This document shows, one piece after another, positions 5,450-46,085 of a stretch of 51,667 nt of DNA. The position numbers were made by a program, and so were the translations under genes. The stretch covers positions 1 to 51,667 of the forward strand of contig CAJOGQ010000029.1 in assembly GCA_905234125.1 (NCBI GenBank), in the 5' to 3' direction. Numbering within the stretch: the stretch's first letter is position 1; every line of letters starts with the position of its first letter. The DNA comes from an uncultured Bacteroidaceae bacterium. GTDB lineage: Bacteria; Bacteroidota; Bacteroidia; Bacteroidales; Bacteroidaceae. The notes below the pieces were generated by a model. That model was not told where the DNA came from. It did not search any database and saw only the letters and a program-made list of their open reading frames with translations.

Positions 5450-8400
5450 ATGCGTCGAATCGTACTCTTCACCACCCTACTCCTCTCTGCCCTCCTGATG
5501 TGGGCAGATGACTCTTATCGTTTCCAGACTCTCACCACTGCCGACGGCCTGTCGAGCAGTACCGTGAAGTGCATGCTCATCGACAACAGGGGCTTCCTGT
5601 GGATTGGCACAGATGAGGGACTGAACCTCTACGATGGCTATAAGGTGGAGGCGTTTGGTCAGCAACATGATGTCCCCAAGCTGATGGAGGGCATTGCTGA
5701 ACTTCAGGAGGACGCACAGGGCTATGTGTGGATAGATTGCGAAGATTCCTACATCATCTACGACACCAACACCCGCACCCTCATCAATGATGTGCCAGCC
5801 ATGCTGAAGGGGCTTGGCGTCGATGTGGGCGAACAGCCTTATAAGGTGAAGGTGGACGACACAGGGTCGCTGTGGATTCTGCAACCAGGCCGTCTCTTCC
5901 GCTACGACTGGCAGAGCGGACGGGCAGAGTCGTGGAAGAACGCCAACTTCGACACGGGCGACGTCAACTTCTATGCCTGCACAGCCACCCACGAAACGAT
6001 GCTCATAGCCGGCAAGCAAGGCGTGTGGCAGTTTGTGCGCTCCACAGGACGGATGGAGCCATTGGCATTGCCCCAAGAGATGCAACGCAAGGACAACATC
6101 TACGGCACGTTCATCGACACAGACCGCACGCTTTGGGTGTTCTCCATCATCGACGAGTGCATCTGCCGATACAGCGTCGGGGGCAAGATCATCAAAGAGA
6201 TGTTGCGCCTTCCCTCGGAGGGCACTGACGAGTCGAAGAACAACGCCATCCGCGACATGATGGACGACGGTCAGGGCAACGTGTGGATAGCCACCGACCA
6301 CAAGGGCATCTTCATCTACCACAAGCCCACTGGGGAGATCACCCATATAGAGGGGGCAAGAAGCAAGGGGCAAGGGGCAAGCATCCCATCCCAAAGCCTC
6401 AGTTCCAACAACGTCATCTCGTTGGCCAAAGACCGTCAGGGAACCGTGTGGGCAGGGCACTTCAAGACGGGCATCTCCTATTGGGGAGCCAGCAGCAGGA
6501 TGTTTGGCAACGGAGGCCAGACCTACGGCGACATCAGCGCCATGTTCCGCGACTCACGGGGCAACCTCTGGATTGGTACCGACGGAGATGGACTCTATGT
6601 GGAGCATCCTGATGGCACATCCGAAAAGACCGCCTTGCCCAACCTCACCGTGTCGTCCTTCACCGAAGATATGGACGACCACACCATCTGGGTGGGCACC
6701 TACAGCGACGGCCTTTTTCAGATGTCTTCGCCCCATCAATACAAGGCCTACAACATCGGCAACGGCCTTTCGCCCACCAACAATGCCTGGCGTGTCATCG
6801 CCGACAACAGTCAGCACATCTGGTGCGCATCGCCCATCCATCCCCTCGTCAGGCTCAACACCCAGACGGGTCAATGGGAGGGCATGAAGGACGAGCAAGG
6901 CGACCACATCTACGGCATGGACTTCCGCCTCGACCGCCGAGGCAACTTGCTCATCGCCTCCACCTACGGACTGGTCATCCACGACAACAAGACGGGCAAG
7001 ACACGACGCTACACCACCAATCTGAGCGGTACGCAGGAGATGAAGGTCAAGACCGCCGTGGCACTCTGCTACGATGCCAAGCGTGACCTCCTGCTTATGG
7101 GACACAAGCAGGGACTCACCCTCTTCGACCTTCAGCACGACCACTTATATTATATAGAGAACACGCCCAACCGGGTGGACATCAGCGTGAAGAGCATCGA
7201 GCAAGACCGGCAGGGCATATTCTGGCTCAGCACCGCCAACGGCATCTCCCGTCTGAACGTGGAACAAAAAAAGGACGGCACCCTCCAATGGAGCATCAAA
7301 AACTACGCGCCAAGGGAGGGACAAATCACCCCCTTCTTCAACGGCAACTCGTCCGTGCTCACCGCCGACGGAAACGTCCTCTTCGGCGGTATTGATGGCT
7401 ACACACTCATCAACCCCAACAACATCAGCACCCTGCCCACCACGCCACTCACACCCGCCATCGTCAGCGTCACGGTGGCAGGACGACGCATCGACACCAC
7501 CGATGGACACATCACCCTCGACCCCGATGACAACCCCATCACCATCCGCTACTTCACTGGCCAACTCAACCACACCAGCACCATCCGCTACGCCTACAAG
7601 ATTGAGGGCATGATGAGCGACTGGGCATACACGAAGGAGAACAACATCACCCTCGTGGGACTGAGCCCTGGCGAGTACCGACTGCTCCTGCGCACAGACG
7701 ATGACGAGCAGACGACCGACCAGCAGCCCTGCGTGCTCTCCATCCATGTACGCCCACCCTTCTACCAGACCCCTTGGGCATGGGCCATCTACACCCTCAT
7801 CATCTGCACCATCGGTTATCTGCTGTGGCGTCACACCCGCCGTCAGCAGCAACAGAAATGGCAACAGCAGAAGGAAGACCTCGAACGGCAGAAGCTCGTG
7901 CAGATGACTGAGATGAAGCTCCAGTTCTTCACCAACATCAGTCACGACCTGCGCACACCCCTCACCCTCATCATCACCCCCATCGATGCCCTCGTCAAGA
8001 AACTCGAAAACGGACAACGACCCACTACCCTGTTGCCCCAGCTGAAGAACATCCGCAAGAATGCCCAGCTCCTGCTCAGCCAAGTCAGTTCCCTGCTCGA
8101 CTTCCGCCGACTCGACGTGGGTGCTGAGACCTTGCAAGCATCACCTTCCGACATCGTCACACAGTTGGGCACCATCTGCCTGTCCTTCGACGACTATTCC
8201 CACGAACGAGACATCACCCTCCAATACACGCCCTCCGAGCCTTCCTTCGTCATGACCTACGACAAGGAGAAGCTCAACAAGATGGTCTATAACCTCCTCT
8301 CCAACGCCTTCAAGTTCACCCCACAAGGCGGACACATCAGCGTGCAGTTCAGCCACGACGACCACGAGGCCACCATCACCGTCGCCGACACAGGCCGAGG

Positions 8401-9451
8401 CATCCCCGACAAGGACAAGCACAGCATCTTCCACCGCTTCTATCGGGCAGAGACCGATGACCAGTCCCAGACGGGCAGCGGCATCGGACTCCACATCGTG
8501 AAAGAATACGTCACCATGCACGGAGGAACCGTGAGCGTGAGCGACAACACCCCACAAGGAAGCGTGTTCAAGATAAAGTTGCCACTGAAGACCACCTCCA
8601 TGGAGGGAACTTCACAGGCTGAGAATCCAAAGGAAAACATCCAAGGTGGAGATATTCCCCTCACAGAAGAAGCGGAAAAAGGGAACGAGTCTTCCATCCT
8701 CGTTGTCGATGACAACCCCGACATCCTCGCCTTCATCAGCAATAGCCTGGCCGACAACTACGATGTGCGCACAGCCACCGATGGGCAATCAGCCCTCGAC
8801 ATCGTGGCCGACCAAAATATCTCGCTCATCATCAGCGACGTGATGATGCCCGGCATCGATGGCTTCGAACTCTGTCGACGGCTCAAGAGCGACATCCACA
8901 CCTCCCACATCCCCATCATCCTGCTCACAGCCCGTACCACCGACCAGAGCAAGATTGAGGGATTGCAGTTGGGTGCCGACGACTACATCACCAAACCCTT
9001 CAACATGGATGTCCTCCAACTGCGTGTGCAGAAATTCATGGAGTGGGCCAACAAGAGCCATCAGGAATTCAAGCAGAAACTCGACGTGAACCCCAGCGAA
9101 ATCACCATCACCCCACTTGATGAGCAGTTCCTGCAGAAGGCCATCCAGCTCGTCGAGAAACAGATGACCGACACCGACTTCAGCGTAGAGAAATTAGGCC
9201 AGCAGTTAGGCATGTCGCGCTCCTTCCTTTACAAAAAACTCATGGCCGTCACTGGATTAGGTCCCGCTGAGTTCATCCGCACCATCCGCATCAAACGGGG
9301 CATGGCCTTGCTCGAACGCTCCCAAATGCAGATTACTGAAATAGCCTACGCCGTCGGCTTCAACTCCCTCAAGAGCTTCACCATGAACTTCAAGGCCGAA
9401 TACGGTATGACCCCCAGTGAGTACCTGAAACGGAAAGACGAGAAAGTCTGA
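5450..9451 (+). CDS. Hybrid two-component system sensor/regulator (HTCS)
   Basis: This 1333-residue protein joins all parts of a phosphorelay. It has a signal peptide (MRRIVLFTTLLLSALLM), a periplasmic sensor of two-component-regulator propeller repeats (WIGTDEGL, WIATDHKG, WIGTDGDGL and others, about 20-680), a Y_Y_Y domain (about 690-765), and one membrane helix (about 777-795). The cytoplasmic part has a HisKA box NISHDLRTPLT with His at 832, a HATPase with DTGRGIPD and GSGIGLHIV, a receiver (VVDDNPD, phospho-acceptor Asp about 1130 in SDVMMPG), and a C-terminal AraC-type helix-turn-helix. Such regulators sense oligosaccharides and switch on nearby polysaccharide-use genes. The neighbours point to a beta-glucan or fucosylated xyloglucan. 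A heptad array in the propeller encodes the odd stretch EGARSKGQGAS. Confidence 0.96.
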   Translation: MRRIVLFTTLLLSALLMWADDSYRFQTLTTADGLSSSTVKCMLIDNRGFLWIGTDEGLNLYDGYKVEAFGQQHDVPKLMEGIAELQEDAQGYVWIDCEDSYIIYDTNTRTLINDVPAMLKGLGVDVGEQPYKVKVDDTGSLWILQPGRLFRYDWQSGRAESWKNANFDTGDVNFYACTATHETMLIAGKQGVWQFVRSTGRMEPLALPQEMQRKDNIYGTFIDTDRTLWVFSIIDECICRYSVGGKIIKEMLRLPSEGTDESKNNAIRDMMDDGQGNVWIATDHKGIFIYHKPTGEITHIEGARSKGQGASIPSQSLSSNNVISLAKDRQGTVWAGHFKTGISYWGASSRMFGNGGQTYGDISAMFRDSRGNLWIGTDGDGLYVEHPDGTSEKTALPNLTVSSFTEDMDDHTIWVGTYSDGLFQMSSPHQYKAYNIGNGLSPTNNAWRVIADNSQHIWCASPIHPLVRLNTQTGQWEGMKDEQGDHIYGMDFRLDRRGNLLIASTYGLVIHDNKTGKTRRYTTNLSGTQEMKVKTAVALCYDAKRDLLLMGHKQGLTLFDLQHDHLYYIENTPNRVDISVKSIEQDRQGIFWLSTANGISRLNVEQKKDGTLQWSIKNYAPREGQITPFFNGNSSVLTADGNVLFGGIDGYTLINPNNISTLPTTPLTPAIVSVTVAGRRIDTTDGHITLDPDDNPITIRYFTGQLNHTSTIRYAYKIEGMMSDWAYTKENNITLVGLSPGEYRLLLRTDDDEQTTDQQPCVLSIHVRPPFYQTPWAWAIYTLIICTIGYLLWRHTRRQQQQKWQQQKEDLERQKLVQMTEMKLQFFTNISHDLRTPLTLIITPIDALVKKLENGQRPTTLLPQLKNIRKNAQLLLSQVSSLLDFRRLDVGAETLQASPSDIVTQLGTICLSFDDYSHERDITLQYTPSEPSFVMTYDKEKLNKMVYNLLSNAFKFTPQGGHISVQFSHDDHEATITVADTGRGIPDKDKHSIFHRFYRAETDDQSQTGSGIGLHIVKEYVTMHGGTVSVSDNTPQGSVFKIKLPLKTTSMEGTSQAENPKENIQGGDIPLTEEAEKGNESSILVVDDNPDILAFISNSLADNYDVRTATDGQSALDIVADQNISLIISDVMMPGIDGFELCRRLKSDIHTSHIPIILLTARTTDQSKIEGLQLGADDYITKPFNMDVLQLRVQKFMEWANKSHQEFKQKLDVNPSEITITPLDEQFLQKAIQLVEKQMTDTDFSVEKLGQQLGMSRSFLYKKLMAVTGLGPAEFIRTIRIKRGMALLERSQMQITEIAYAVGFNSLKSFTMNFKAEYGMTPSEYLKRKDEKV
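6353..6380 (+). repeat. Heptad array GGGGCAA x4 inside the HTCS gene
   Basis: Four contiguous 7-nt units: GGGGCAA, GAAGCAA, GGGGCAA, GGGGCAA (28 nt). It encodes a Gly/Ser/Gln-rich loop between two propeller blades. The same unit family occurs at 10882, 13039 and 22207. Confidence 0.85.
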
Positions 9452-9494
9452 CGAATCATTTTTATGTGTTTTTTAGGCCACATCTGCCTGAAAA

Positions 9495-9593: not shown

Positions 9594-12500
9594 ATGAAAA
9601 GGATGCAAAGAGTGCTGTGCCTGGCCACAGCGTTGCTGACAACAAGCCTGTGTGCAGTGTCGGCTGAATGGGAGAAACCCGTTCCCAATGATTGTTCGCT
9701 CGGTAACGGCGGCAAGTTCTATCTCTACAACGCCACGATGGAGCAATTCGCTTCGGATGTGAGCGGACAGGTGTCATTAGCTGACGAAGGTTCGCTCATC
9801 ACGTTCGTGCAACTGAAAAGTGGCGACTGGACGTTAGAGAGCGAGAAGGGCTACTGGTATAGCGACCTCGACTACGTGGGTTGCGACGGAGCCTTGGGAG
9901 AGGGCAACAGCAATTGGTATGTGGAGAAGGAGGCTTCGGGCGCTTATCATCTGCGCGCCTCGAAGAACGACATCGACTTCTCATGGGAGCTATACCCTGA
10001 CGCATGGATGGGTTTCTCGTGGGAGAAGTGGAAGCTGACTTCGCTGATCAAGGCTGACGAGGGCACCATCGACTGGAGCGTGATTTCGGGAGATGACTAT
10101 GCCTTCTTTGCCAGCAAGGTGACCCTGCACCACACGATGAAGGAGTTGCAGGGCTATGGATATGACGTGACGAAGCTCCTGACAGTCTATAATTCAGCCA
10201 CCGACAAGGCCACGATAGACGAGGCGCTCAAGGGGGTGCAAGACGACCTGAACAACCTGCGCATCGAACACGCCTCGGAGGAGAATCCCGTGGACGTCAC
10301 ATCTATATATATGCGCAACCCTGACTTCACAGAGAACTGGGTGAACGACGGACACGACGTGCCTGGTTGGACGATGGTGCCTGCCACGTTCTGCGGAATG
10401 GGCGAATCGGACAACGTGGGTTTCTATCCCGACAATAAGACCATCGGTTCGTGGTCAGGCGGTGCGTTTGGCGACAACAAGGTGAGTCAGCAACTGACGG
10501 GACTGAAGAACGGTAAGTACAAGTTGGGCAACTACGGCCTTTGGATTCGTCACACAGGTGAGGATGGCGACCCGCTGAAGGGTGCGTACATCTATGCCAA
10601 GGTAGGCGACAAGCTGTTCAGGGAGCCGCTGCCCGACACAGGTTGGTGGCGTGGTCTGGCCGAGGTTGTGTTTGAGTGCCGTACAGGTGAGGCCGAAGTG
10701 GGCATCATGTTCGAGGGCACCAACGTTGGACAATGCATCATCCTCGATTTCAAGCTCGACTATCTGGGAGAGAAGGCTGTCACGGAACGTCTGAATGCCC
10801 TCTGCGAACAGGCACAAGCCCTCATCGACGGTGGTGGCATCTATGCAGGATATGCCCAGACGCTCTCTGACGACATCAAGAAGAGCAAGGAGCAAGGAGC
10901 AGGAGACGAGGAACTGGAAGCGCTCTTCACGACCTTCGTGGCTGACTACGAGACCGCACTGGCTAACAAGGAGGCTTACGAGGCTCTCTCCGCATTGGTG
11001 GACGAGGCCAAGACGACCATCAGCAAGGGCGACTCGGAGGCCATGAGCGCTTTGGCTGACTATCTGATGGACAATGAGATTGAGGACGAGGTGGCTAACC
11101 ACGTCTATGACAACGAGCAGATTGCCGAGATCACCAAGACGCTCTCTGCCCTGAATGAGAAGGCCGCCAACTCTGTCATCGAGGCTGGAACGGACGTGAC
11201 TGACCTCTTGGTGAACGGACACTTCGACACAACGGGTGGCTGGACTGCCACACTCAACGACTTCAGCATCGACCCCGACAAGAAGGTGCTGGAGAAGTGG
11301 TGGGGCGACTTCAAAGCTGAGCAGATTCTGGAGAACGTGGCCAACGGCACTTACCGGCTGGAGGTGCAGGGCTTCCAATGGTGCTCGTGGGACTGGTCGG
11401 CGGCTGAAAGCGACTGGAACAATGGCGATGGAAGTGCCACAACCAACGTGACGTCGAAGGTGCGCCTCAACGACAACGAGGTGCTGATTCAGAATGTGTT
11501 CGCCTGTGGAGAGACAGGCATCACGGAGGGTTATCAGGGTGGCAACTACTGCGTGCCCAACGATGCCAACACAGCAATGCCCTACTTCGCACTCGGACTA
11601 TATAATAATGTGGTGGAGACAACCGTGACCAACAACACGCTCAAAGTGGAGTTTGACTGCTCATCGAACGGCTTCTGGAACTGCTTCACCAACCTCCGAC
11701 TCTACTTCGTGGGAGCCGACACCAAGGAAGCCCTCGCCAATCTCGAAACGGCCATCAAGCAGGCTGACGAATGGCTCGGACAGAAGATGGAGGGTGAGAC
11801 CCGCAAGGCCATCGAGGACGCCAAGACCGCTGGTCAGGCCATGCTCACGAACACCAAGGCAAAGTATGACGACATCAACGATGCCTCCAACGCCATCCTT
11901 TCGCTGGCCGACCAAGTGGCTGTCAGCATCAAGGACTACAGCAAACTCTCCACAGCCCTGACTGAGGCCGAGGAGGCGCTGAAGGACGAGAAGGTGGACG
12001 GCACAGAAGCAGGTGGCAACCTGAAGGCGCTCTATGACCAGACCATCGCCGACTACAACAGCGACTACCCATCGCTCGACCAAGCAGGTGTGAACAAAAC
12101 CGTGGAGCAACTCGAAGCCCTCATGTTCGAGGCACGCATCAGCGGTGGTGTGAACGCAGGCGATGACCTCACCAGCCTCATCATCAACCCCAGCTTCGAG
12201 AACACCTTCGGCAATGATGAGTCAGTCGGAGGCGCTGCCCACACCGTGCCTTACGGATGGATGATGAACGTAGCAGGCAAAGAGTGCAAGACCGCCCAGG
12301 AACTCACCGACGCTGGCATCAACAGCTGGACAGCCATCGAGGCCAACGACTACACCACCGACGGCGCCTACTCCTACTGCCTCCTCTCGGCTCCTGTGCC
12401 CGACTGCTATCTCTATCAGACCATCAAGGGACTCCCAGCTGGGACATACAAGGTGACTGTCGATATGAACGTGACTTACGACGGAGGATGCTCACGCCTC

Positions 12501-12974
12501 ACGGGTCAGCGTCTGCTCGCCAACAACGTGGCTCAGTATTACGGCATGCAAGACTTCTACATTGAGTCTGAACTTGACAACCTCCATCCTGAAGAGGTGT
12601 CTCGCACCTTCGCCGGCTATGACGAGGTGAACACCAACGAAACAGGTGAAGTGGGCGACATGGGTAACATGTCCACACTCGCAGTCGAAGTGACCATCGG
12701 CAATGGCGAAGCCCTCACCATCGGCGTGCGCACCGACAACAACAAGCAGGCCATGAACCGCAACTATGAGAACAACTGGTGGGACTGCACAGGTCGCTAC
12801 AAGATTGACAACTTCCGTCTCACCTGCGTAAGTGCCGACATCACGGGCATCAGCGACGTGAAGACCAACCTCACCAACGATGGCGCCACCTACAACCTCA
12901 TGGGCATCAAGGTGAACCCGGCCAACGCACGTGGCATCTACTTCCAGAACGGAAAGAAATATTTCAAGAAGTAA
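9594..12974 (+). CDS. Large secreted protein with three carbohydrate-binding-like modules
   Basis: The 1126-residue product has a signal peptide (MKRMQRVLCLATALLTTSLCAVSA). Three segments begin with an NPxF or NGxF motif and look like galactose-binding jelly rolls: about 239-395 (NPDFTENW), 538-707 (NGHFDTTGGW) and 860-1079 (NPSFENTF). They are separated by alanine/glutamate-rich helical stretches of FIVAR type (about 395-535 and 710-855). The end has the tail GIYFQNGKKYFKK, shared with the GH5 protein. No catalytic motif is seen, so a surface or secreted glycan-binding role is inferred. The operator and promoter upstream place it under the HTCS, in one operon with GH29. A three-unit heptad array lies in the first helical linker. 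Confidence 0.85.
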   Translation: MKRMQRVLCLATALLTTSLCAVSAEWEKPVPNDCSLGNGGKFYLYNATMEQFASDVSGQVSLADEGSLITFVQLKSGDWTLESEKGYWYSDLDYVGCDGALGEGNSNWYVEKEASGAYHLRASKNDIDFSWELYPDAWMGFSWEKWKLTSLIKADEGTIDWSVISGDDYAFFASKVTLHHTMKELQGYGYDVTKLLTVYNSATDKATIDEALKGVQDDLNNLRIEHASEENPVDVTSIYMRNPDFTENWVNDGHDVPGWTMVPATFCGMGESDNVGFYPDNKTIGSWSGGAFGDNKVSQQLTGLKNGKYKLGNYGLWIRHTGEDGDPLKGAYIYAKVGDKLFREPLPDTGWWRGLAEVVFECRTGEAEVGIMFEGTNVGQCIILDFKLDYLGEKAVTERLNALCEQAQALIDGGGIYAGYAQTLSDDIKKSKEQGAGDEELEALFTTFVADYETALANKEAYEALSALVDEAKTTISKGDSEAMSALADYLMDNEIEDEVANHVYDNEQIAEITKTLSALNEKAANSVIEAGTDVTDLLVNGHFDTTGGWTATLNDFSIDPDKKVLEKWWGDFKAEQILENVANGTYRLEVQGFQWCSWDWSAAESDWNNGDGSATTNVTSKVRLNDNEVLIQNVFACGETGITEGYQGGNYCVPNDANTAMPYFALGLYNNVVETTVTNNTLKVEFDCSSNGFWNCFTNLRLYFVGADTKEALANLETAIKQADEWLGQKMEGETRKAIEDAKTAGQAMLTNTKAKYDDINDASNAILSLADQVAVSIKDYSKLSTALTEAEEALKDEKVDGTEAGGNLKALYDQTIADYNSDYPSLDQAGVNKTVEQLEALMFEARISGGVNAGDDLTSLIINPSFENTFGNDESVGGAAHTVPYGWMMNVAGKECKTAQELTDAGINSWTAIEANDYTTDGAYSYCLLSAPVPDCYLYQTIKGLPAGTYKVTVDMNVTYDGGCSRLTGQRLLANNVAQYYGMQDFYIESELDNLHPEEVSRTFAGYDEVNTNETGEVGDMGNMSTLAVEVTIGNGEALTIGVRTDNNKQAMNRNYENNWWDCTGRYKIDNFRLTCVSADITGISDVKTNLTNDGATYNLMGIKVNPANARGIYFQNGKKYFKK
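10882..10902 (+). repeat. Three heptad units (AGAGCAA, GGAGCAA, GGAGCAG)
   Basis: It lies within the first helical linker of the 1126-residue protein. At 21 nt it is a multiple of three and encodes SKEQGAG. It belongs to the GGRGCAA unit family. Confidence 0.7.
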
Positions 12975-13038
12975 AGCAACTTCTCTTACCACTATGATTA
13001 GAAAACTCATCACTCTCATGGCGTTCGCCCTAAGTTTA

Positions 13039-13102
13039 GGGGCATGGAGCATGGAGCAAGGAGCAGGAAACCTCTTGCCCCTTGCCCCTCGCCCCCTGCT
13101 CC
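13039..13102 (+). repeat. Inverted pair of four-unit heptad arrays
   Basis: The left arm is GGGGCAT, GGAGCAT, GGAGCAA, GGAGCAG (13039-13066). An 8-nt spacer follows. The right arm is TTGCCCC, TTGCCCC, TCGCCCC, CTGCTCC (13075-13102), the reverse complement of the same unit family. Each arm is 28 nt. It encodes the region just after the GH29 signal peptide. Confidence 0.85.
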
Positions 13103-14092
13103 TCAAAAAAACTCCTGTTCCCACCAAGGATCAGCTCGCATTGCAGGACATGGAGATGTATGCCTTCATCCACTATGCGCTCAACACCTACACCGACCAG
13201 GAGTGGGGCTATGGTAACGAGGACTTGAAGCTCTTCAATCCCCAGCACCTGGACTGCCGTCAGTGGGCACGCACCTGCAAGAATGCGGGCATGAAGGGCA
13301 TCATCTTCACAGCCAAGCACCATTGTGGCTTCTGCATGTGGCCATCGGCCTACACGGACTACTCCGTGAAGAACACCCCTTGGAAGAACGGGCAGGGCGA
13401 TGTGGTGCGCGAGCTGGCTGATGCCTGCAAGGAGTATGGGCTGAAGTTTGCCGTCTATCTCTCGCCTTGGGACAGGAACCACCCTGAGTACGGACGTGAA
13501 GCCTACGTGACCTACTTCCGCAACCAGCTCCGTGAACTGCTCACCAACTATGGCGAGGTTTTCGAGGTGTGGTTCGACGGAGCCAATGGAGGCAACGGTT
13601 GGTATGGAGGTGCCGACGAAGTGCGCACCATCGACCGCCTCACCTACTACAAGTGGGGCGACACCTACAAGATGATTCGCGAACTGCAACCCCATTGCGT
13701 CATCTGGAACGACGGCGCCGACCGACGTGGCGACCTCCGATGGGTGGGTACAGAGGCTGGATTCATCGGCGAAACCAACTGGAGCATGCTCAACAGCACA
13801 GGCGACGTGCCCTACCCTATGCTTCACTACGGCGTGGAAGATGGCGACGTGTGGTGTCCTGGCGAGACCAACACCTCCATCCGTCCAGGCTGGTTCTATC
13901 ACGATGCAGAGAACGGCCACGTGAAGAGCCTCTCCAAACTCATGGAAACCTACTACAAATCCGTGGGGCGCAACTCCACCCTGCTGCTAAACTTCCCCAT
14001 CGACAAAGACGGACTCATCCATGCCGAAGACTGGTGCCGCATTCTACAACATGATCAAACAAATCTTCGACCATCCGCTGAAAGCCAAATTC

Positions 14093-14120
14093 TCAACTAT
14101 CAACTCTCAACTGTCAACTC
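14093..14120 (+). repeat. Heptad array TCAACTN x4
   Basis: TCAACTA, TCAACTC, TCAACTG, TCAACTC (28 nt) in the linker between the GH29 catalytic and C-terminal domains. It encodes STINSQLST. The same family appears on the other strand inside purB (45091-45118). Confidence 0.85.
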
Positions 14121-14800
14121 TCACTTTCCAAAAGCCCACGAATTTCAACCGCCTGATGATTCGTGAGGACATTCGCAAGGGACAGCGTGTGAAGCGCTTC
14201 AAGGTCGAGGCACTTGTCGATGGCACATGGACAGAACTGCACGACATCATTTCAGAAGAGCCTGAGCGAAGCATGACCACCATCGGACGCAAGCGCATCC
14301 TCTGCTTCCCCACCACCGAGGCCACCCAAATCCGCCTCACCATCCTCGACACCAAGGACACACCCCTCATCAAGACCATGAGCGCCTACCTCGCCCCAGA
14401 GATAGACGCCGACAGTCCTGAGAACGGCGAGAAGAAGTCCTCCGCCTACTACGTCTTTTTCCCAGGCTCAGGCAGTCCCGTTCAGAGCATGTTCATCGGC
14501 CTGGGAAAGCAAATGACGGTGAAACAGTTCCGTTTCCTCCCTGCGCAAGACACGAAAGAGGGCATGCCCTTAGACTACACCCTCTCCATCTCGCCCGACA
14601 ACGGGCAGACCTGGGCTGTGCTGGCCAAGGGCGAGTTCTCCAACATCGTCAACAACCCCATCTGGCAGACCGTCAACTGCACTCCTGCCACCGGCAGTCT
14701 GCTCAAGCTCGACTGCTCGCGCATCACCTCCGGCAACCGCATCTTCTATGCCGACCTGGAGGTTTTGGAGTGAACGTCACAAAAGAACATTTTTGAAAGG

Positions 14801-17264: not shown

Positions 17265-17284
17265 ATGATAGAAGGCGCTTCGCT

Positions 17285-17312
17285 AAATGAGAAATGATAA
17301 ATGACAAATGAT
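17285..17312 (+). repeat. Heptad array AAATGAN x4
   Basis: AAATGAG, AAATGAT, AAATGAC, AAATGAT (28 nt), 20 nt after the stop of the peptidase gene. It is preceded by a doubled CGCTTCGCTAAATGA that includes the stop codon itself. A shorter related copy on the other strand is at 38949-38962. Confidence 0.85.
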
Positions 17313-17342
17313 AAACATATTTACTAATAATAATCAAAGACA

Positions 17343-21849: not shown

Positions 21850-23097
21850 ATGGCTTACGACTTCGACAAAACCATCGAGAGGCACGGGACAAACTGTGTG
21901 AAATGGGATACCTTTGGGGCAACGCTCCCAAGAACTATCCAAAATGAACTGAAAGACCCAGAGATCCTCCCCATGTGGGTGGCAGATATGGACTTCGAGA
22001 CGGCTCCGTGCGTGCTTCTGGCACTCAAGGAAAGGATGGAGCATGGGTGTTTTGGCTATACGCTTGTGCCTGAGAGCTATTACGAGGCCACGATTGGGTG
22101 GTTCAAGAGGAGGCATGGATGGGAGATCAATCGAAAGTCGTTCATTTACACGAGTGGTGTGGTGCCTGCCATCTCTGCCATCATCAAGGGGGTTGTTGAG
22201 GAACAAGGGGCAGGGAGCAAGGAGCAAGGGGCAAGGAGCGAGGGGCAAGTGAAGGTGCTGGTGCAGACGCCTGTGTATAATTGCTTCTTCTCCAGCATCA
22301 GGAATAATGGCTGTGAGGTAGCGGAGAGTCCACTAAAGATGATGGGGCATCGGTATGAAGTGGATTGGGAGGATTTTGAAAAGCAATGTGCTGACCCCAA
22401 CGTGAAGGTCTTCCTGCTTTGCAATCCGCATAATCCTGCTGGACGGGTGTGGACACGAGAGGAGTTGGTGAGAATGGGCGAAATCTGCCTACGAAATGAT
22501 GTGTTTGTCATTTCAGACGAGATTCATTGCGAATTCACAATGCCAGGACACACTTATACGCCCTATGCGAGCCTCAACGAGAATTTTGCCAAGAATTGCG
22601 CCGTGTGCTTGTCGCCCTCGAAGGCTTTCAACATCGCAGGGCTTCAGATAGCCAACATCATTGTGAAGGATGCGGACATCAGAAGGCGGGTGGACAAGGC
22701 CATCAACATCAATGAGGTGTGCGACGTCAATCCTTTTGGCGTCATCGCTCTCCAGGCAGCCTACTCGGATGAGGGCGAGAAGTGGTTGAACGAACTGAAT
22801 GAGTACATCCACGGGAATTATATCTTGGCCAAAGAAATGCTGGAGAAGGGTGTTCCTCAATGCCCTGTGACGGAACTGGAGGGCACGTATCTGATGTGGG
22901 TCAATATCGCCCAGACGGGCAAGACATCGAAGGAAGTGACTGACCATCTCCTGCATCAGGAGAAAGTGTATGTGAACGCTGGCCCGATGTATGGCGAAAA
23001 GGCTGGTGAGGGTTACATCCGAATCAATCTTGCAACAAGAAGAAAACTCGTTGAAGAGGGCATCGGACGCATTATCCGTGGAATCAAGAGCATCTGA
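21850..23097 (+). CDS. MalY/PatB-type aminotransferase (cystathionine beta-lyase-like)
   Basis: The 415-residue product is a fold-type I PLP enzyme of the MalY/PatB group: N-terminal YDFDKTIERHGTNCVKWD, PMWVADMDFETAP, CNPHNPAGRVWT, ISDEIHCEF, and SPSKAFNIAGLQ with the PLP lysine at about 258. Members cleave C-S bonds of cystathionine or cysteine, releasing a thiol or H2S and pyruvate. Residues about 119-133 (QGAGSKEQGARSEGQ) are not family-like and come from a six-unit heptad array. The 42-nt length keeps the frame, so the enzyme may stay functional with an extra surface loop. It follows the broken aminotransferase by 32 nt. Confidence 0.9.
   Translation: MAYDFDKTIERHGTNCVKWDTFGATLPRTIQNELKDPEILPMWVADMDFETAPCVLLALKERMEHGCFGYTLVPESYYEATIGWFKRRHGWEINRKSFIYTSGVVPAISAIIKGVVEEQGAGSKEQGARSEGQVKVLVQTPVYNCFFSSIRNNGCEVAESPLKMMGHRYEVDWEDFEKQCADPNVKVFLLCNPHNPAGRVWTREELVRMGEICLRNDVFVISDEIHCEFTMPGHTYTPYASLNENFAKNCAVCLSPSKAFNIAGLQIANIIVKDADIRRRVDKAININEVCDVNPFGVIALQAAYSDEGEKWLNELNEYIHGNYILAKEMLEKGVPQCPVTELEGTYLMWVNIAQTGKTSKEVTDHLLHQEKVYVNAGPMYGEKAGEGYIRINLATRRKLVEEGIGRIIRGIKSI
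22207..22248 (+). repeat. Heptad array GGRGCAA x6
   Basis: GGGGCAG, GGAGCAA, GGAGCAA, GGGGCAA, GGAGCGA, GGGGCAA (42 nt) inside the MalY-like gene, in frame. It is the longest array of this family in the window. Confidence 0.88.
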
Positions 23098-29447: not shown

Positions 29448-29453
29448 AAAAAA

Positions 29454-29486
29454 GAGTGAAGAGTGAAAAATCTTCACTCTTCACTT
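29454..29486. terminator. Inverted heptad pair GAGTGAA/TTCACTC, likely terminator
   Basis: GAGTGAA, GAGTGAA, a 5-nt spacer AAATC, then TTCACTC, TTCACTT: two heptads and their inverse. It can form a 14-bp stem and sits exactly between two convergent genes. It acts as a likely terminator while being built from 7-nt units. Confidence 0.65.
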
Positions 29487-35184: not shown

Positions 35185-35189
35185 CCATC

Positions 35190-37394: not shown

Positions 37395-38936
37395 ATGAAG
37401 AAGAGTATTTCATGGGTGGTGGCCATCCTCCTTGTCTTTGGATTGTCGGCACAGCGTGCTGGGGCACAAGACATTGCACCATCGCAGTCGCTGAAGAAAG
37501 TGAAAACAGAGAACGAGAGCACCATCTATTCCTTCAACTACCCCAGCGTCAATGCGAGGGGGGAGGAGACGGTGCTTTCGTCGGCTCTGATTGCATGGAC
37601 ACCTTCCTTCCGCCACGATGATGACAGCATCGAATCGGTGCACATCTTCTGCCACGTCACCATCACCGATGATAAGGAGCGTCCCTCTGCCTCGCAGTCG
37701 CTGAGAGACCGTCAGTTGTTGACAACGATGATTGGTCGAAACTACAAGCTCCTCTCCAAGCAGGGCGACTATGTGTCACGTGCCATCATCATCGCCCCCG
37801 ACTACGAGGGCTACGGCGTGACCAAGACCTCGCCCCATCCCTACCTGTCACAACGGCTCACGGCACGTCAGGTGACGGATGCCGTGACCTACGGCATGCA
37901 ACTCTACCGCAAGGCCGTCGAAGAAGGATCACAGTTAGCCATGAAGAGCGACTGGCGCACCTTTGCATACGGCTGCTCACAAGGAGGTGCCGTCGCCTTG
38001 GCCACTCAGCGCTACATCGAGGAGCAGGGACTGGCTGACGAACTGCACTTCAAGGGTTCCATCTGTTGCGAGGGCCCTTACGACCTTGTGGCCACTTTGC
38101 GCTACTATTTGGAGGACGATGGCGATACATCGGGCATCTCCACCGACCATCGCAAGGGCATCTGCACCATGCCCGTTGTGTACCCTTTCATCATGAAGGG
38201 TATGGTGGACACGCACCCCGACATGAAGGACTACACCATCAACGACCTCCTCTCGCAACAACTGATCGACACGGGCGTCATAGACTGGTTAGAAAGCAAG
38301 AATTTCAACACCAATGGCATACATGAGATGTGGTACCACCAACTGCAGGAGGGACTCGATGCCAACGGCCGTCACTACACGCCCGAACAGATGGCAGAAC
38401 TCTTTGAATCGCCTTCCGAGAATATGGTGTGGGGAGATCTGAAGAACATGATGACACCCGAGGTCTACAACTACATGAACAATCCCGCCAATTTTGAAAC
38501 TGTGCCAGCTGAACCGACCAACGCCGCTCAAGCATTGCACCGCGCATTGGTGGACAACTCGCTCACCACGGGATGGACACCCCAGCACCGCATCCAGTTC
38601 GTCCACTCAAAAGGCGACACGGCGGTGCCCTACGCCAACTACCTGTCGTGGCGCGACGCTCAACCCCAAGGCGACATCTACCGTGTGGACGACACTTTCA
38701 GCAAGGCTGACCACCTCGATGCTTCCATCATGTTCTATATGAATCTCTGCCTCTCCAGAAATTTCACCGACATCTTCGAGTGGCTCAGCGAACAGCCCGC
38801 CGAGAGTGGCATCAAGGGAATTGAATGGAACAAGGGCAATGGAACTTGGTACACCCTCGATGGTCGCAAGCTTCAGGGCAAACCCGCTTCAAAGGGGATG
38901 TATATCAACAATGGCAAAAAAGTCGTGATTCGATAG
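37395..38936 (+). CDS. Secreted alpha/beta hydrolase (lipase/esterase-like)
   Basis: The 513-residue product starts MKKSISWVVAILLVFGLSAQRAGAQ (signal peptide). It has an alpha/beta-hydrolase fold with YGCSQGGAVALA as the nucleophile elbow (GxSxG), a preceding IIIAPDYEGYG, an insertion of about 120 residues after it, and a late GDTAVPYAN (Asp) and DHLDAS (His) triad candidate. The sequence resembles secretory lipases of Bacteroidota; the substrate is unknown. The C-terminal segment TWYTLDGRKLQ then GMYINNGKKVVIR is the tail shared with GH5 and the 1126-residue protein. It lies 30 nt after rho and probably shares its transcript. Confidence 0.88.
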   Translation: MKKSISWVVAILLVFGLSAQRAGAQDIAPSQSLKKVKTENESTIYSFNYPSVNARGEETVLSSALIAWTPSFRHDDDSIESVHIFCHVTITDDKERPSASQSLRDRQLLTTMIGRNYKLLSKQGDYVSRAIIIAPDYEGYGVTKTSPHPYLSQRLTARQVTDAVTYGMQLYRKAVEEGSQLAMKSDWRTFAYGCSQGGAVALATQRYIEEQGLADELHFKGSICCEGPYDLVATLRYYLEDDGDTSGISTDHRKGICTMPVVYPFIMKGMVDTHPDMKDYTINDLLSQQLIDTGVIDWLESKNFNTNGIHEMWYHQLQEGLDANGRHYTPEQMAELFESPSENMVWGDLKNMMTPEVYNYMNNPANFETVPAEPTNAAQALHRALVDNSLTTGWTPQHRIQFVHSKGDTAVPYANYLSWRDAQPQGDIYRVDDTFSKADHLDASIMFYMNLCLSRNFTDIFEWLSEQPAESGIKGIEWNKGNGTWYTLDGRKLQGKPASKGMYINNGKKVVIR

Positions 38937-38948
38937 AAAGAGTTTTTC

Positions 38949-38962
38949 TCATTTATCATTTA
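38949..38962 (+). repeat. Two heptads TCATTTA
   Basis: TCATTTA twice, 12 nt after the hydrolase stop. It is the reverse complement of the AAATGAN family at 17285-17312. The rest of 38937-39254 contains an A-rich stretch and one promoter but no gene. Confidence 0.6.
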
Positions 38963-39179
38963 TTCAAGTATCGAAATAGAAAACGTGGTTTGGGTTGCTT
39001 TGAAGACGTTCTCCATTTTCATCGGCAAAGTAAGTGAATTAAAATGGAACACGCAAGCATTTGACCGATTATTTTCACCAAGGCACAAATAAAAAACTCT
39101 TCACACCATTGATTTGCACACTTTGCAAGGAGAAATGAAAAAAAAATCAAAAAAATTTGTTTTTTAACACACTTCACCG

Positions 39180-42582: not shown

Positions 42583-42590
42583 CTTATTCT

Positions 42591-43943
42591 TTATTCATAA
42601 TGTCCCGTGTGCAACATAGCCACCTCCTGCTCAGTGAGGAAGCGCCAGTCGCCACGCTTAATTCCTTTCTTGGTGAGTCCAGCGAACACAACGCGGTCGA
42701 GACGGGTCACCTTGTAGCCAAGGCTCTCGAAGATACGGCGCACGATGCGGTTCTTACCAGAGTGAATCTCGATGCCAACCTGTTTGTGGTCGGTCTCAGA
42801 AGCGTAGCTGATGTCGTCGGCCTTGATTTCGCCGTCCTCAAGCATGATGCCTTCAGCAATCTGCTTCATGTCGGCAGCAGTGAGGTTCTTGTCGAGATGA
42901 ACATGATAGATCTTCTTCTTCAGGAACTTAGGATGGGTCAGCTTGGAAGCCAAATCACCATCGTTGGTGAAGAGGAGCACACCAGTGGTGTTGCGGTCGA
43001 GACGTCCCACAGGGTAGATGCGTTCGCGACAGCAGTTCTTCACGAGTTCCATCACAGTCTTGCGCTGTTGTGGATCGTCGGAAGTGGTCACGTAATCCTT
43101 TGGTTTGTTGAGGATGACATACACCTTCTTCTCGATGCTGACAAGCTGGTCGTGGAAGTGCACCTGGTCAGTACGCTGAACCTTCGTTCCAAGTTCAGTA
43201 ACCACCTGTCCGTTGACAGAAACCACACCAGCCTGGATGAACTGGTCTGCCTCACGACGGGAACAAACGCCTGCATTGGCAAGGAACTTGTTCAGACGGA
43301 TGGGTGCATTTGGATCCTCGAGATATTCCTTATATTCGATTTGCTTCTTCATGCTGTACTTGGCGTTGGGATTGTAGCCACCACGCTGGTTGTAACCACC
43401 ACGGCCACCCTGCTGATAGCCACCACGCTGATTGTAGCCACCACGCTGCTGATAGCCACCCTGACGAGGCTGATAACCCTGCTGTTCGAAGCCACCTTCC
43501 TGCTGTTCGCCACCAGGCTGATAACCACGATTGGGGTTGTAGCCACCCTGACGAGGCTGATAGCCACCACGTTGCTGATAGCCACCACGCTGGTTGTAGC
43601 CACCATTGTAGCCACCACGCTGGTAACCACCCTGACGAGGCTGATAACCACCCTGACGAGGCTGATAACCACCTGACTGCTCGCCACCCTCCGTGGAAGA
43701 TGAACCACCGAAGCCTGCTGGACGGAAGCCACGTTCATTCTGTACGCCATTTGAACTATAGGCAGCACGTTCGTTACGATTGAAACGAGGACGCTGTGGA
43801 CGGTCGCCACGACCGTATGCAGGATGCGCGCCATTACTGCTTTCACGGTTGTAAGATGGACGATAGCCTTCGCGGTCACCTCCATTTTCAGATTTCTCTT
43901 CTGGTGCAGGTGTCTTTCCCTGCCATTCTTCAATTTCAGACAT
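42591..43943 (-). CDS. RluB/RsuA-type pseudouridine synthase with long Gly/Tyr/Gln-rich N-terminal tail
   Basis: The 450-residue product has a 200-residue N-terminal low-complexity tail of GGYQPRQ and GGYNQR repeats. Then come an S4 domain ([22 protein letters not shown], about 217-265) and the synthase domain with the catalytic Asp in [17 protein letters not shown] and [13 protein letters not shown]. It converts uridine to pseudouridine in rRNA (probably 23S, as in RluB; the site is not decided). E. coli RluB is about 290 residues, so the tail is the odd part. It resembles RGG/GY-type disordered RNA-binding tails. No clear -7 box is seen upstream (43944-44077). Confidence 0.92.
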
Positions 43944-44077: not shown

Positions 44078-45445
44078 TTACATTCCCGTGTAGGTGTGAG
44101 GCGTGATGGCTCTCAGTTCCTCCTTCACGCTCTCCGACACATCCAACCCGTCGATGAAGTTTCTGATGCTTTCAGCTGTGATGGCCTCATTGGTACGGGT
44201 GAGCGCCTTGAGTGCTTCGTAAGGATGGGGATAGGCCTCACGGCGAAGGATGGTCTGGATGCCCTCAGCACAGACAGCCCAGCAGTTGTCGAGGTCGCGG
44301 TTGATGGCCTCCTGATTGAGCAAGAGTTTGCGCAGACCCTTCAACGTGGATTGGATGCTGATGACCATGTGACCCATCGGCACACCCACATTGCGGAGCA
44401 CGGTAGAGTCGGTCAAGTCACGTTGCAGACGGCTCACAGGCAATTTCTGACCCAAGAAAGCGAGGATGGCGTTAGCCATGCCGAGGTTGCCCTCTGAGTT
44501 CTCGAAATCGATAGGATTCACCTTGTGGGGCATTGCCGACGAACCCACTTCGCCAGCTTTGATCTTCTGCTTGAAGTATTCCATCGACACATACATCCAG
44601 AAGTCCCTGTCAAGGTCGATGATGATGGTGTTGATGCGCTTCATGGCGTCGAAGATGGCACCCATGTTGTCGTAGTTGCTGATTTGGGTTGTCCACTCCT
44701 CACGCTGCAAGCCCAGTTTCTCGCTCACGAACTGATTGCCAAAGGCCTTCCAGTCGTAGTTGGGATAAGCGATGTGATGAGCATTGTAGTTGCCCGTCGC
44801 ACCACCAAACTTGGCGGTAATCTTGCAGGCCTTCAACTGGTTCAATTGCTCCGTCAGACGATAGACATACACCATCACTTCCTTGCCCAGACGTGTGGGA
44901 GAGGCTGGCTGTCCGTGTGTCTTGGCCAGCATGGGGATGTCCTTCCACTCGTCGGCGTACTCCTTGAGTTGCGCGATGAGTTCCTCCACTTGGGGATAGT
45001 ACACCTCTGTGAGTGCATCCTTGATGGTGAGAGGCACGGATGTATTGTTGATGTCCTGACTGGTCAAACCGAAATGGATGAATTCCTTGACGGTTGATAA
45101 TTGACAGTTGACAGTTGCCTGTTTCTCAATCTCATCAAACTTCTCCTTGATGAAGTATTCCACAGCCTTCACATCGTGGTTGGTCACCTTCTCAATGTCC
45201 TTCACACGCTGTGCATCTGCCTCGGAGAAATTGCGGTAGATGTCACGCAGACGCTCGAAGAGCCCTTTGTCAAAGCTCTCTAACTGTGGCAGAGGCAACT
45301 CACACAACGTGATGAAATACTCGATTTCAACACGAACACGATATTTAATAAGTGCATACTCGGAAAAATACGCAGCCAAATCTTGCGTCTTGCTTCTGTA
45401 ACGACCATCTATAGGCGAGACAGCCGTGAGTGCATTCAGTTCCAT
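44078..45445 (-). CDS. purB: Adenylosuccinate lyase
   Basis: The 455-residue product starts MELNALTAVSPIDGRYRSKT, as in PurB. It has GLTSQDINNTS, KTHGQPASPT, the signature GSSAMPHKVNPIDFEN, and an ordinary length. It catalyses two steps: SAICAR to AICAR plus fumarate, and adenylosuccinate to AMP plus fumarate. Residues about 110-120 (KQATVNCQLSTVKEF) replace the expected short linker, because a four-unit heptad array lies there. The enzyme is otherwise complete. It has a long leader of about 110 nt. Confidence 0.96.
   Translation of the reverse strand: MELNALTAVSPIDGRYRSKTQDLAAYFSEYALIKYRVRVEIEYFITLCELPLPQLESFDKGLFERLRDIYRNFSEADAQRVKDIEKVTNHDVKAVEYFIKEKFDEIEKQATVNCQLSTVKEFIHFGLTSQDINNTSVPLTIKDALTEVYYPQVEELIAQLKEYADEWKDIPMLAKTHGQPASPTRLGKEVMVYVYRLTEQLNQLKACKITAKFGGATGNYNAHHIAYPNYDWKAFGNQFVSEKLGLQREEWTTQISNYDNMGAIFDAMKRINTIIIDLDRDFWMYVSMEYFKQKIKAGEVGSSAMPHKVNPIDFENSEGNLGMANAILAFLGQKLPVSRLQRDLTDSTVLRNVGVPMGHMVISIQSTLKGLRKLLLNQEAINRDLDNCWAVCAEGIQTILRREAYPHPYEALKALTRTNEAITAESIRNFIDGLDVSESVKEELRAITPHTYTGM
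45091..45118 (-). repeat. Heptad array TCAACTG-type x4 inside purB
   Basis: Plus-strand units CGGTTGA, TAATTGA, CAGTTGA, CAGTTGC (28 nt), the reverse complement of the TCAACTN family at 14093-14120. It encodes part of ATVNCQLSTV. Confidence 0.82.
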
Positions 45446-45555: not shown

Positions 45556-45565
45556 TGCAAAGTTA
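45556..45565 (-). promoter_or_regulatory. -7 box TAACTTTGCA (minus strand) for purB
   Basis: TAACTTTGCA on the minus strand, about 110 nt before the purB ATG. A C9 homopolymer run lies further upstream (about 45612-45620). Confidence 0.6.
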
Positions 45566-45642
45566 CGGCTTTTTCAGCAAGTAGAAGGCATGAAGCACGC
45601 AGAAACACGCTCCCCCCCCCTCTTTTTTTATATTTTTAACCC

Positions 45643-46041
45643 TTAATCCAGCTTATCCAGGGCTGAAATGCGAAAAGCGGTGTACAGTTCTATCACCACA
45701 AAAAACACAAATGGTATCAGCCAAGCTGTTTGCCCCACATACATGCCGGCATAGAAACCTGGTGGCATCCACATGAAAATCGTGGCCAACACCAAGCCCA
45801 CCATTCCAAACACACGCTGATGATACAATCGGCGCATCGTCAGTTCTAGGGGGTCTGTCGGGAGGTAGTTCATATAGAACGGTGTCTGCATGAAACGTCC
45901 GATAGCCAACGCCACCGTTCCGATGGCCATCGCTATAGAAGCCCATAAGCGCACGCTAGGGGACAACCACAGGGCTGCGCCCAACACCACCAGGCACAAA
46001 CCAACCACCTCTACAACACCTAAAATCTTATCCTTGTCCAT
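45643..46041 (-). CDS. Small membrane protein, four helices, unknown function
   Basis: The 132-residue product has about four membrane helices (VVGLCLVVLGAALWL, IAMAIGTVALAIGRFM, VFGMVGLVLATIFMW, IPFVFFVVIELYTAF). No family is recognised with confidence. It is second in a run after the DivIC-like gene (46 nt gap filled by the heptad array), so it may be co-transcribed and perhaps linked to cell division or envelope; this is inference from position. It is an ordinary-looking Bacteroidales gene. Confidence 0.8.
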   Translation of the reverse strand: MDKDKILGVVEVVGLCLVVLGAALWLSPSVRLWASIAMAIGTVALAIGRFMQTPFYMNYLPTDPLELTMRRLYHQRVFGMVGLVLATIFMWMPPGFYAGMYVGQTAWLIPFVFFVVIELYTAFRISALDKLD

Positions 46042-46050
46042 TAGCTCATC

Positions 46051-46085
46051 TCTAAACCCTAAACTCTATACCCTAAACTCTAAAC
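46051..46085 (+). repeat. Heptad array YCTAAAC x5
   Basis: TCTAAAC, CCTAAAC, TCTATAC, CCTAAAC, TCTAAAC (35 nt). It fills the gap between two minus-strand genes and ends 2 nt from the stop codon of the DivIC-like gene. Confidence 0.85.

What the first reader, a model, noticed from the sequence alone, without database searches (positions are those of the whole stretch)
6353..46085. Dispersed micro-arrays of 7-nt units, mostly exactly four units long
At least eight arrays share a period of 7 nt but belong to unrelated unit families: GGRGCAA (6353, 10882, 13039, 22207), TCAACTN (14093, and 45091 on the other strand), AAATGAN (17285, 38949), YCTAAAC (46051) and GAGTGAA (29454). Five single arrays or arms are exactly 28 nt: 6353, each arm at 13039, 14093, 17285, 45091. 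They lie in coding linkers or right after genes, and unit changes of 7 nt would shift the frame. I know of heptamer repeats in cyanobacteria but not of this set in Prevotella; whether it is undescribed I cannot tell. The unit length is common to all families, so one mechanism making 7-nt period arrays seems likely.
Basis: partly seen in the sequence, partly recalled or inferred. Interest (0 to 1): 0.75.

Follow-up and report, generated by a model that had tools for sequence, protein, structure and literature searches.

The report
Dispersed, changeable seven-letter DNA repeats
This bacterium, probably from an animal gut, and its relatives carry many tiny arrays of seven-letter DNA repeats, often about 30 letters long, at gene ends, between genes and in protein loops; in some related species the site is kept while the repeat itself is changed or swapped, which looks like an overlooked, active kind of bacterial microsatellite.

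Summary
The 7-nt arrays are real: 9 in the window at score >=11, shuffles near zero; 33 in a 400-kb sample of the same genome against at most 8 for any other period up to 20 (period 21: 12, period 22: 16). 'Exactly 28 nt' is not right; 31 of 64 arrays are 26-34 nt. A few unit families recur across the genus, a scrambled unit is nearly absent. Beyond an ordinary microsatellite: (1) sites are kept while units change. Over four pairs of related genomes 38 of 53 array sites hold an array in the partner (control 12 of 304), 4 of 53 are identical (control 107 of 304), 14 have another unit; but this rests mainly on one pair, and pair G006/G026 shows no swaps. (2) Arrays are extra in-frame segments in PurB and an aminotransferase. 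(3) One or two unit positions stand out as variable in five of six families. No reverse transcriptase or Y1 transposase match in the own genome, 84% complete. Best reading: slippage plus copying between arrays by ordinary replication/repair. The heptamer excess is in print; the mechanism here is inferred.

The parts
6353..6381 (+). GGRGCAA array, coding, in a hybrid two-component regulator (propeller part)
   Evidence: TRF; gene domains
10883..10905 (+). GGRGCAA array, coding, in a 1126-aa ORF without Pfam match; relative G034 has non-repeat sequence there (38 vs 44 nt)
13042..13103 (.). inverted pair of GGRGCAA arrays (13042-13065 / 13074-13103), strong hairpin, in the front (leader) part of the fucosidase ORF
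   Evidence: fold -38.9 kcal/mol, z -4.4
14091..14123 (+). TCAACTN array between fucosidase and F5/8-type C domain; relative G034 has a non-repeat stretch 3 nt shorter
17284..17315 (+). AAATGAN array between a DPP-IV-like peptidase gene and a thioredoxin-like gene; unstructured as RNA
22199..22249 (+). GGRGCAA array as an extra segment (+42 nt against 7 relatives) in an aminotransferase; 8 of 9 relatives compared lack a heptamer array there, G025 has a TCAACTG array at the same place
29452..29485 (.). inverted pair AGAGTGAA / TTCACTCT between convergent genes (hairpin, terminator-like)
   Evidence: fold -21.1 kcal/mol, z -5.7
38945..38963 (+). weak TTTATCA array (2.7 units) just after the gene 37395-38936
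   Evidence: below the score threshold
45087..45117 (-). TCAACTG array in PurB (adenylosuccinate lyase), +21 nt; shared with G003 only among 29 relatives aligned
46050..46086 (-). GTTTAGAG/GGGTTTA array filling the gap between the stop of gene 46088-46390(-) and the start of gene 45643-46041(-)

Best explanation
These are dispersed heptanucleotide micro-arrays: short (often 26-34 nt), imperfect microsatellites of a few shared unit families. Proposed working: arrays grow and shrink by 7-nt or 14-nt slippage; they reach new sites and overwrite one another by copying from other arrays during replication or repair (template switching or gene conversion), the 7-nt register being kept where families share letters; selection keeps those at tolerant or useful sites (the stop-start gap between genes, gene 3' ends, hairpins, protein loops in frame). 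Shown here: the 7-nt excess, recurring families, arrays present in some species and absent in others at the same place, sites kept with changed or swapped units in some pairs of genomes, in-register mosaics of two families, one or two variable positions per unit in most families. Inferred: copying between arrays as the route, slippage as the growth step, any use to the cell.
For: Period 7 dominant. 36 of 42 arrays of window plus unpicked sample lie within one letter of six reference units against 15% of random heptamers (references chosen after seeing the data). Three-unit TCAACTN in 26 of 45 genus genomes, up to 220 overlapping matches in one; AGTGAAN in 39 of 45; scrambled ACTTCAN 3 matches in 2 of 45. 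Matched sites: 24 array sites, 128 comparisons, 31 array, 5 weak, 92 none; sites counted from each genome that has the array, so not independent. Related pairs, both directions: 53 array tests, 4 identical, 20 same family, 14 different family, 15 none; 304 control intervals, 107 identical, 12 with an array. Same site, different family: aminotransferase loop (GGRGCAA in own, TCAACTG in G025) and 46050 (CTAAACC in own, TCAATTG in G025); AATTATG in G017 against TCAATTG in G025. TCAACT and TAAACT in phase in 61 of 64 nearby pairs. Variant letters of TCAACTN repeat at two-unit spacing: 60 of 104 against 38.7 +/- 3.9 shuffled. Same-family length changes between partners include 7 and 21 nt.
Against: The swaps come mainly from one pair: G017/G025 (35 tests: 0 identical, 11 same, 13 different, 11 none) and G002/G003 (9: 4 same, 1 different, 4 none); G006/G026 (9 tests) has 4 identical, 5 same, no swap, no loss, that is no faster change than its controls (28 of 75 identical); G010/G011 gave no test. 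Array sites without both flanks in the partner were dropped (18 of 25 and 17 of 35 kept in G017/G025). No copying event has a named donor. Array-free matched sites show no seed like the array beyond chance (12 sites, mean z 0.49, one at p 0.03). Some same-family length changes are not multiples of 7 (8, 18, 34, 59). Variants piling up in one column could come from duplication of one variant unit. Why 7 is not explained. Most genomes are drafts, probably metagenome bins.
Confidence: 0.47

Rival explanations
1. Local slippage only: each array is born where it stands, because the polymerase favours 7-nt slips (the idea attributed to Mrazek et al. 2007 in the papers read).
For: Heptanucleotides were the most abundant long repeat class in most genomes surveyed in 2007 (passages of PMC4679880, and PMC4692102); Bacteroidetes median score 0.75 for 7n3 and 0 for 6n3 and 8n3 (PMC4060949 Table 2); length changes of 7 and 21 nt between partners, and pair G006/G026 with no swaps.
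Against: Few families recur at many loci and a scrambled unit is nearly absent; families differ at one site between related genomes; array-free matched sites show no matching seed beyond chance (12 sites); neighbouring variant letters are less often equal than shuffled (41 of 141 against 51.9 +/- 4.5), the opposite of single-unit slippage.
Confidence: 0.22
2. Selected spacer: the sites need an unstructured stretch with stops in all frames (or a hairpin), and heptads are merely a cheap way to build one; turnover is neutral within that need.
For: Of 81 gene 3' ends next to intergenic arrays 28 lie inside the array and 40 within 10 nt of it; of 87 gene starts 26 lie within 22 nt (crude gene calls, sample mostly picked for TCAACT). 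Sites kept with the unit changed. The 17284 array is unstructured as RNA. Inverted pairs have the purine-rich arm first in 23 of 27, several of them orthologous copies.
Against: Arrays inside PurB and an aminotransferase are not spacers between genes; relatives lack an array at the same gene junction (46050: none in G016); 25 of 32 unit families have a stop codon on either strand against 66% of random heptamers, not a clear excess.
Confidence: 0.17
3. A dedicated writer: an enzyme adds heptads by a template, as telomerase or DRT10 does, or moves them as a transposase does.
For: Length cluster near 30 nt; one strongly variable position in several families; same period for all families; DRT10 shows that bacterial enzymes can make tandem-repeat DNA (abstract and passages of PMC12632851).
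Against: No RVT_1 match in the own genome (84% complete); of the 10 genus genomes (own included) with at least 55 TCAACT matches, 2 have an RVT_1 match. No Y1_Tnp match in the own genome; over the cut-off in 1 of those 10. No element-encoded protein is seen. These two families do not cover all conceivable writers.
Confidence: 0.1
4. Chance or assembly artefact.
For: Genomes are drafts, many probably metagenome bins; gene starts are from my own crude caller.
Against: Shuffles give few or none; arrays are short and sit between unique flanks; the same families occur in most genomes of the genus searched (39 of 45 for AGTGAAN, 26 of 45 for TCAACTN).
Confidence: 0.02

Closest known systems
Long simple sequence repeats with heptamer excess in prokaryotes (Mrazek, Guo, Shah 2007; not held; known here through passages of PMC4679880 and PMC4692102; also the 2014 survey PMC4060949, section 3.1 part 1 read)
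   Same: unit of 7 nt is the dominant class; Bacteroidetes mildly over-represented for 7n3
   Different: here several shared families per genome, imperfect units with one or two variable positions, extra segments in enzymes, and different families at one site; I saw none of these in the passages read
TAACTGA direct repeats of Beggiatoaceae, some cyanobacteria and five Bacteroidetes (MacGregor 2015, PMC4679880, abstract and passages)
   Different: one exact unit there, related heptamers rarely repeated; here many units, TAACTGA not among the 32 units counted, unit variants frequent
GGGAATC / GGGGA(C/T)T heptamers of Xanthomonas and Nostoc (Rehm et al. 2015, PMC4692102, abstract and passages)
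   Same: degenerate heptamers, majority with four units, mostly intergenic, some inverted pairs, extensive length and sequence variation between close species
   Different: G-quadruplex-forming unit there; here mostly AT-rich units and changes of unit family
Tandem repeats of Borg elements (PMC9879509, abstract and passages)
   Same: fast-evolving, genome-specific, both intergenic and in frame in ORFs
   Different: perfect units there, unit length in ORFs divisible by three; here 7-nt units, imperfect
DRT10 tandem-repeat synthesis (PMC12632851, abstract and passages)
   Same: short tandem-repeat DNA; repeat set by an RNA template there
   Different: no RVT_1 match in this genome; arrays are chromosomal, short and imperfect

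Membership tests
Heptamer long simple sequence repeats (Mrazek 2007 class) | 7-nt unit over-represented against expectation and against other unit lengths | tested here: met
Heptamer long simple sequence repeats (Mrazek 2007 class) | change by whole units between close genomes (slippage) | tested here: inconclusive
   some length changes of 7 and 21 nt, but also 8, 18, 34, 59, and 14 of 53 tests with another family
TAACTGA repeats (MacGregor 2015) | unit TAACTGA | tested here: not met
   not among the 32 units of 126 own arrays
TAACTGA repeats (MacGregor 2015) | arrays a few nt upstream of start codons | tested here: inconclusive
   26 of 87 starts within 22 nt, but gene 3' ends are at least as close (40 of 81 within 10 nt)
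Xanthomonas/Nostoc G-rich heptamers | unit GGGNATC or GGGGAYT able to form a G-quadruplex | tested here: not met
   no such unit among the 32 counted; quadruplex formation itself not tested
REP/REPIN with RAYT | Y1 transposase encoded in the genome | tested here: not met
   no PF01797 match in G000 (84% complete)
REP/REPIN with RAYT | GTAG- or CGTC-tagged palindrome | not tested
   hairpin cores seen between inverted arrays were not typed against these tags
Telomerase-like / DRT10 repeat synthesis | reverse transcriptase plus template RNA | tested here: not met
   no PF00078 match in G000 (84% complete); template RNA not tested
Phase-variable contingency loci | unit-number change within a species that switches a gene | not testable with these tools
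   one genome per species is held; no strain series
Cyanobacterial short tandemly repeated repetitive sequences | heptamer families of heterocystous cyanobacteria | not tested
   named from memory; only the search listing was seen

The most novel reading that the evidence does not exclude
A still unidentified process, not a PF00078 reverse transcriptase and not a Y1 transposase, writes and overwrites roughly 30-nt heptad arrays at retained chromosomal sites, with a mostly fixed core and one or two free letters per unit, so that one genome keeps changing the unit at its array sites.
Probability: 0.15. Interest if true: 0.9.

Novelty: new variant of a known kind. Interest (0 to 1): 0.6.

Why it matters
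The preference of bacteria for 7-nt tandem repeats was noted in 2007; the papers I read offer a polymerase-slippage idea but no shown cause. Here is a genus in which genomes hold many such small arrays and in which, at least in some pairs of related genomes, sites are kept while the unit changes, with built-in comparisons (same site empty, same family, other family). That makes the cause testable by comparing strains and by passaging. It also shows that such arrays can sit inside conserved enzymes such as PurB and in the junctions between genes, so they could alter proteins and operons.

Tried and rejected
Frameshift switch at 14091: the split of the fucosidase/F5-8 gene looked like a phase-variable break by the array, but alignment with G034 shows an 8-nt deletion about 60 nt upstream of the array, and the array stretch itself differs from G034 by 3 nt. 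RAYT/REPIN as the mover: no Y1_Tnp match in the own genome. Telomerase-like writer: no RVT_1 match in 8 of the 10 genus genomes richest in TCAACT, the own included. Seeds at array-free sites: none beyond chance (12 sites). Known RNA family: none at gathering threshold in 123 kb, the window and four loci. Stop codons as the selected feature of the units: 25 of 32 families against 66% of random units, not clear. Phages as carriers: 64 stretches of the viral collection hold a four-unit TCAACT array, not read further. The backward control is uninformative because TCAACT reads the same backwards; one search was run as a control. Variants concentrated in one column: outside the genus not clear at period 7 (6 arrays, z 1.5) and seen at period 9 (10 arrays, z 3.8), so not claimed beyond the genus. 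'Same family' was too lenient (up to 2 mismatches on either strand); the counts given are. The set was picked mostly for contigs with TCAACT hits (19 of 20 stretches), so period and length statistics rest on the set plus the window; the positions, the 126 arrays, the column counts and the phases include the picked set. Two stretches were tiny (L072, L078) and left out of the densities.
Full report
1. What was claimed and what is there. Tandem Repeats Finder and a separate period scan confirm eight clear places (6353, 10883, 13042 with an inverted partner at 13074, 14091, 17284, 22199, 45087, 46050) and two weak ones (29452-29485, 38945). At score >=11 the window has 9 period-7 arrays; no other period from 2 to 16 has more than 3 except period 14 (5), which describes the same arrays; eight third-order shuffles average 0.0 at period 7. 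'Exactly 28 nt' is not right: window arrays run from 18 to 51 nt depending on the program.

2. Genome scale. In 400 kb from the first 20 kb of 20 contigs not chosen for repeats, 33 arrays have period 7 (one shuffled set: 2), against 0-8 for each other period from 2 to 20, 12 for 21 and 16 for 22. Lengths: of 64 arrays at score >=9 in that sample plus the window, 31 are 26-34 nt long; shuffles give 3.5 in all, all under 20 nt. Over 219 arrays of the stretches and named loci fetched by then the median is 4.4 units. So 'about four units' is a genuine cluster but not a fixed length. Density per 100 kb at score >=11: 8.2 (own sample), 17.4 (window), 13.3 (genus stretches chosen for synteny), 5.0 (37 named loci, mostly Bacteroidales), 1.7 (43 further named loci), 0.6 (eight stretches of other families of the order).

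3. Families. In the window plus the unpicked sample, 36 of 42 arrays lie within one letter of one of six units (TCAACTC, TAAACTC, AGTGAAA, AAGGAGC, AAATGAT, AATTAGG), against 15% of random heptamers of the same composition; the six were picked after seeing the data. Across 45 genomes of the genus a three-unit TCAACTN pattern occurs in 26, from 0 to 220 overlapping matches per genome, AGTGAAN in 39, and the scrambled ACTTCAN in 2 (3 matches). In 295 other genomes drawn from the phylum 21 have TCAACTN, two of them with 83 and 55 matches. The families are thus shared but amplified to very different degrees.

4. Anatomy of a unit. In several families the mismatches between neighbouring units pile up in one column: TCAACT[N] 101 of 231 against 8-33 in each of the other six (46 arrays); AAATGA[N] 10 of 18 against 0-2 (7 arrays); AAT[T/G]AGG 8 of 17 against 0-2 (4 arrays). 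TAAACTC has two such columns (36 of 80 and 20 of 78), GGRGCAA two (14 of 37 and 10 of 43), AAAAGTG only a mild one (11 of 69). The share of deviations in the top column within single arrays is 0.64 against 0.43 expected in own arrays (33 arrays, z 8.9) and 0.57 against 0.41 in genus relatives (11 arrays, z 3.8); outside the genus the effect is not clear. Variant letters of TCAACTN agree at two-unit distance (60 of 104, shuffled 38.7 +/- 3.9) and disagree at one-unit distance (41 of 141, shuffled 51.9 +/- 4.5), so the working step may be 14 nt. TCAACT and TAAACT units within 40 nt of each other are in 7-nt phase in 61 of 64 cases, TCAACT and TTAACT in 17 of 24, TCAACT and TCACCT in 26 of 53; unrelated units are not (GGAGCA/TCAACT 1 of 16, TCAACT/CATTTA 2 of 7).

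5. Where arrays lie. With a simple gene caller (88.6% coding), 36 of 126 own arrays are inside genes, 81 between genes, 9 partly; 84 of the 126 come from stretches picked mostly for TCAACT. Next to the non-coding arrays, 28 of 81 gene 3' ends lie inside the array (often a stop codon of the array is the gene's stop) and 40 of 81 within 10 nt; 26 of 87 gene starts lie within 22 nt. Some arrays simply fill the gap from stop to next ATG, as at 46050.

6. Arrays as extra segments in enzymes. The window's PurB match is 1365 nt; most relatives' are 1344. In an alignment with 29 relatives only G003 shares the array segment; 28 lack it. In the one alignment with a solved structure that was printed (9bpl_A), the chain has an eight-residue gap there. 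A purB tree built without the segment places the window's genome with G005 and G003 with G002, both branches strongly supported, and G005 and G002 lack the array, so the segment arose twice or passed between species; shared letters beside the array favour passage. A Prevotella MAG (L248) carries an AAATCTC array in the same PurB loop. In the aminotransferase 19 of 23 relatives could be aligned: at the site of the window's GGRGCAA array G025 has a TCAACTG array, G034 another repeat, and by eye I saw no heptamer array in the other 17; the scan agrees for the nine genomes it compared.

7. Turnover at kept sites. For 24 array sites with flanks found in genus relatives, 128 comparisons gave 31 arrays, 5 weak and 92 none (sites counted from each genome that has the array). 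For four pairs of related genomes (aligned DNA 90.3, 92.0 and 92.6% identical in the three pairs measured) I asked what the partner holds at each array site, in both directions: 53 tests, 4 identical, 20 same family, 14 different family, 15 none; 304 intergenic 30-nt control intervals: 107 identical, 12 with an array. So array sites have an array in the partner 38 of 53 times against 12 of 304, and are identical 4 of 53 against 107 of 304 (both directions counted, some array sites coding while controls are intergenic, sites without both flanks dropped). The pairs differ: G017/G025, 35 tests, 0 identical, 11 same, 13 different, 11 none (control 47 of 122 identical); G002/G003, 9 tests, 4 same, 1 different, 4 none (control 7 of 63 identical); G006/G026, 9 tests, 4 identical, 5 same and no swap (control 28 of 75 identical); G010/G011, no test. 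Rapid rewriting is therefore shown in one pair and in the wider genus, and not in another pair. Examples: AATTATG in G017 for TCAATTG in G025; TTTTCAC for CTAAACC.

8. Inverted pairs. Twenty-seven inverted pairs of arrays within 130 nt were found in the stretches and named loci; in 23 the purine-rich arm comes first (3 the reverse, 1 even), a property that does not depend on the strand read; several of the 27 are orthologous copies. Several enclose related cores, such as GCCATGCGG...GCATCGCGTCAGCC and AAATCTAAGTTAC...GTAACTTAGATTT; at one matched site the arms differ between G002 and G068 while both hold a hairpin. The window's two hairpins (13042/13074, found under the looser rule, and 29452/29471, below threshold) fold much better than shuffles.

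9. How it may work. Best reading: arrays expand and contract by slippage and are copied between sites by ordinary replication or repair, with selection keeping those that do no harm. Copying is inferred from recurring families, in-register mosaics and swaps at kept sites; no donor was identified. No reverse transcriptase (PF00078) or Y1 transposase (PF01797) match was found in the own genome (84% complete); among the ten genus genomes, own included, with at least 55 TCAACT matches, 2 have an RVT_1 match and 1 a Y1 match over the cut-off. Seeds at array-free sites were not found beyond chance (12 sites), which speaks against birth in place and also gives no support to microhomology capture; divergence is high.

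10. What is known. From passages read: heptanucleotides were the most abundant long repeat class in most genomes surveyed in 2007, with the suggestion that 7 nt is the length held by the polymerase (PMC4679880; PMC4692102); the 2014 survey gives Bacteroidetes a median of 0.75 for 7n3 and 0 for 6n3 and 8n3 (PMC4060949); a 2025 survey says that Bacteroidota have a high density of short tandem repeats and that some repeats of 6-9 nt units are enriched in prokaryotic phyla (PMC12699852, passages). TAACTGA repeats and Xanthomonas GGGAATC repeats are close parallels, the latter also mostly of four units and variable between close species. Seven paper searches, of which I saw listings and starts of abstracts, showed me no description of this multi-family system in Prevotella-like bacteria; the library lacks most subscription papers. 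I therefore file it as a new variant of a known kind.

Noticed in passing
window 14031-14032: Against relative G034 the fucosidase gene lacks 8 nt here, which splits it into two frames (12931-14166 and 14021-14773); G034 reads on in one frame. Could be real or a draft error.
   Followed up: partly
own genome, 27 places, e.g. L179, L183, L194: 13-mer GCATCGCGTYAGC occurs 27 times in the own genome and 0 times read backwards; in a good part of the places it sits directly before a heptamer array, a TATA-like repeat or a CTCCCCCTTCGGGGG hairpin.
   Followed up: partly
window 310-382; L079-L098: Period-11/22 arrays (CTATACCAACTCTATACCAAGG in the window); period 22 is the second commonest period in the unpicked sample (16 in 400 kb).
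   Followed up: no
window 43372-43677: 18-21 nt repeats in the front part of a pseudouridine synthase gene (42591-43943, minus).
   Followed up: no
L162, L166, L177 upstream of purB: GCGTC..GACGC hairpins in the same place in several genus members (seen).
   Followed up: no
   Followed up: no
L046 2971-3068 and L086 7060-7174: GGRGCAA inverted pair nested inside a further inverted repeat with AACTTTCGCAAGTTGAG.
   Followed up: no
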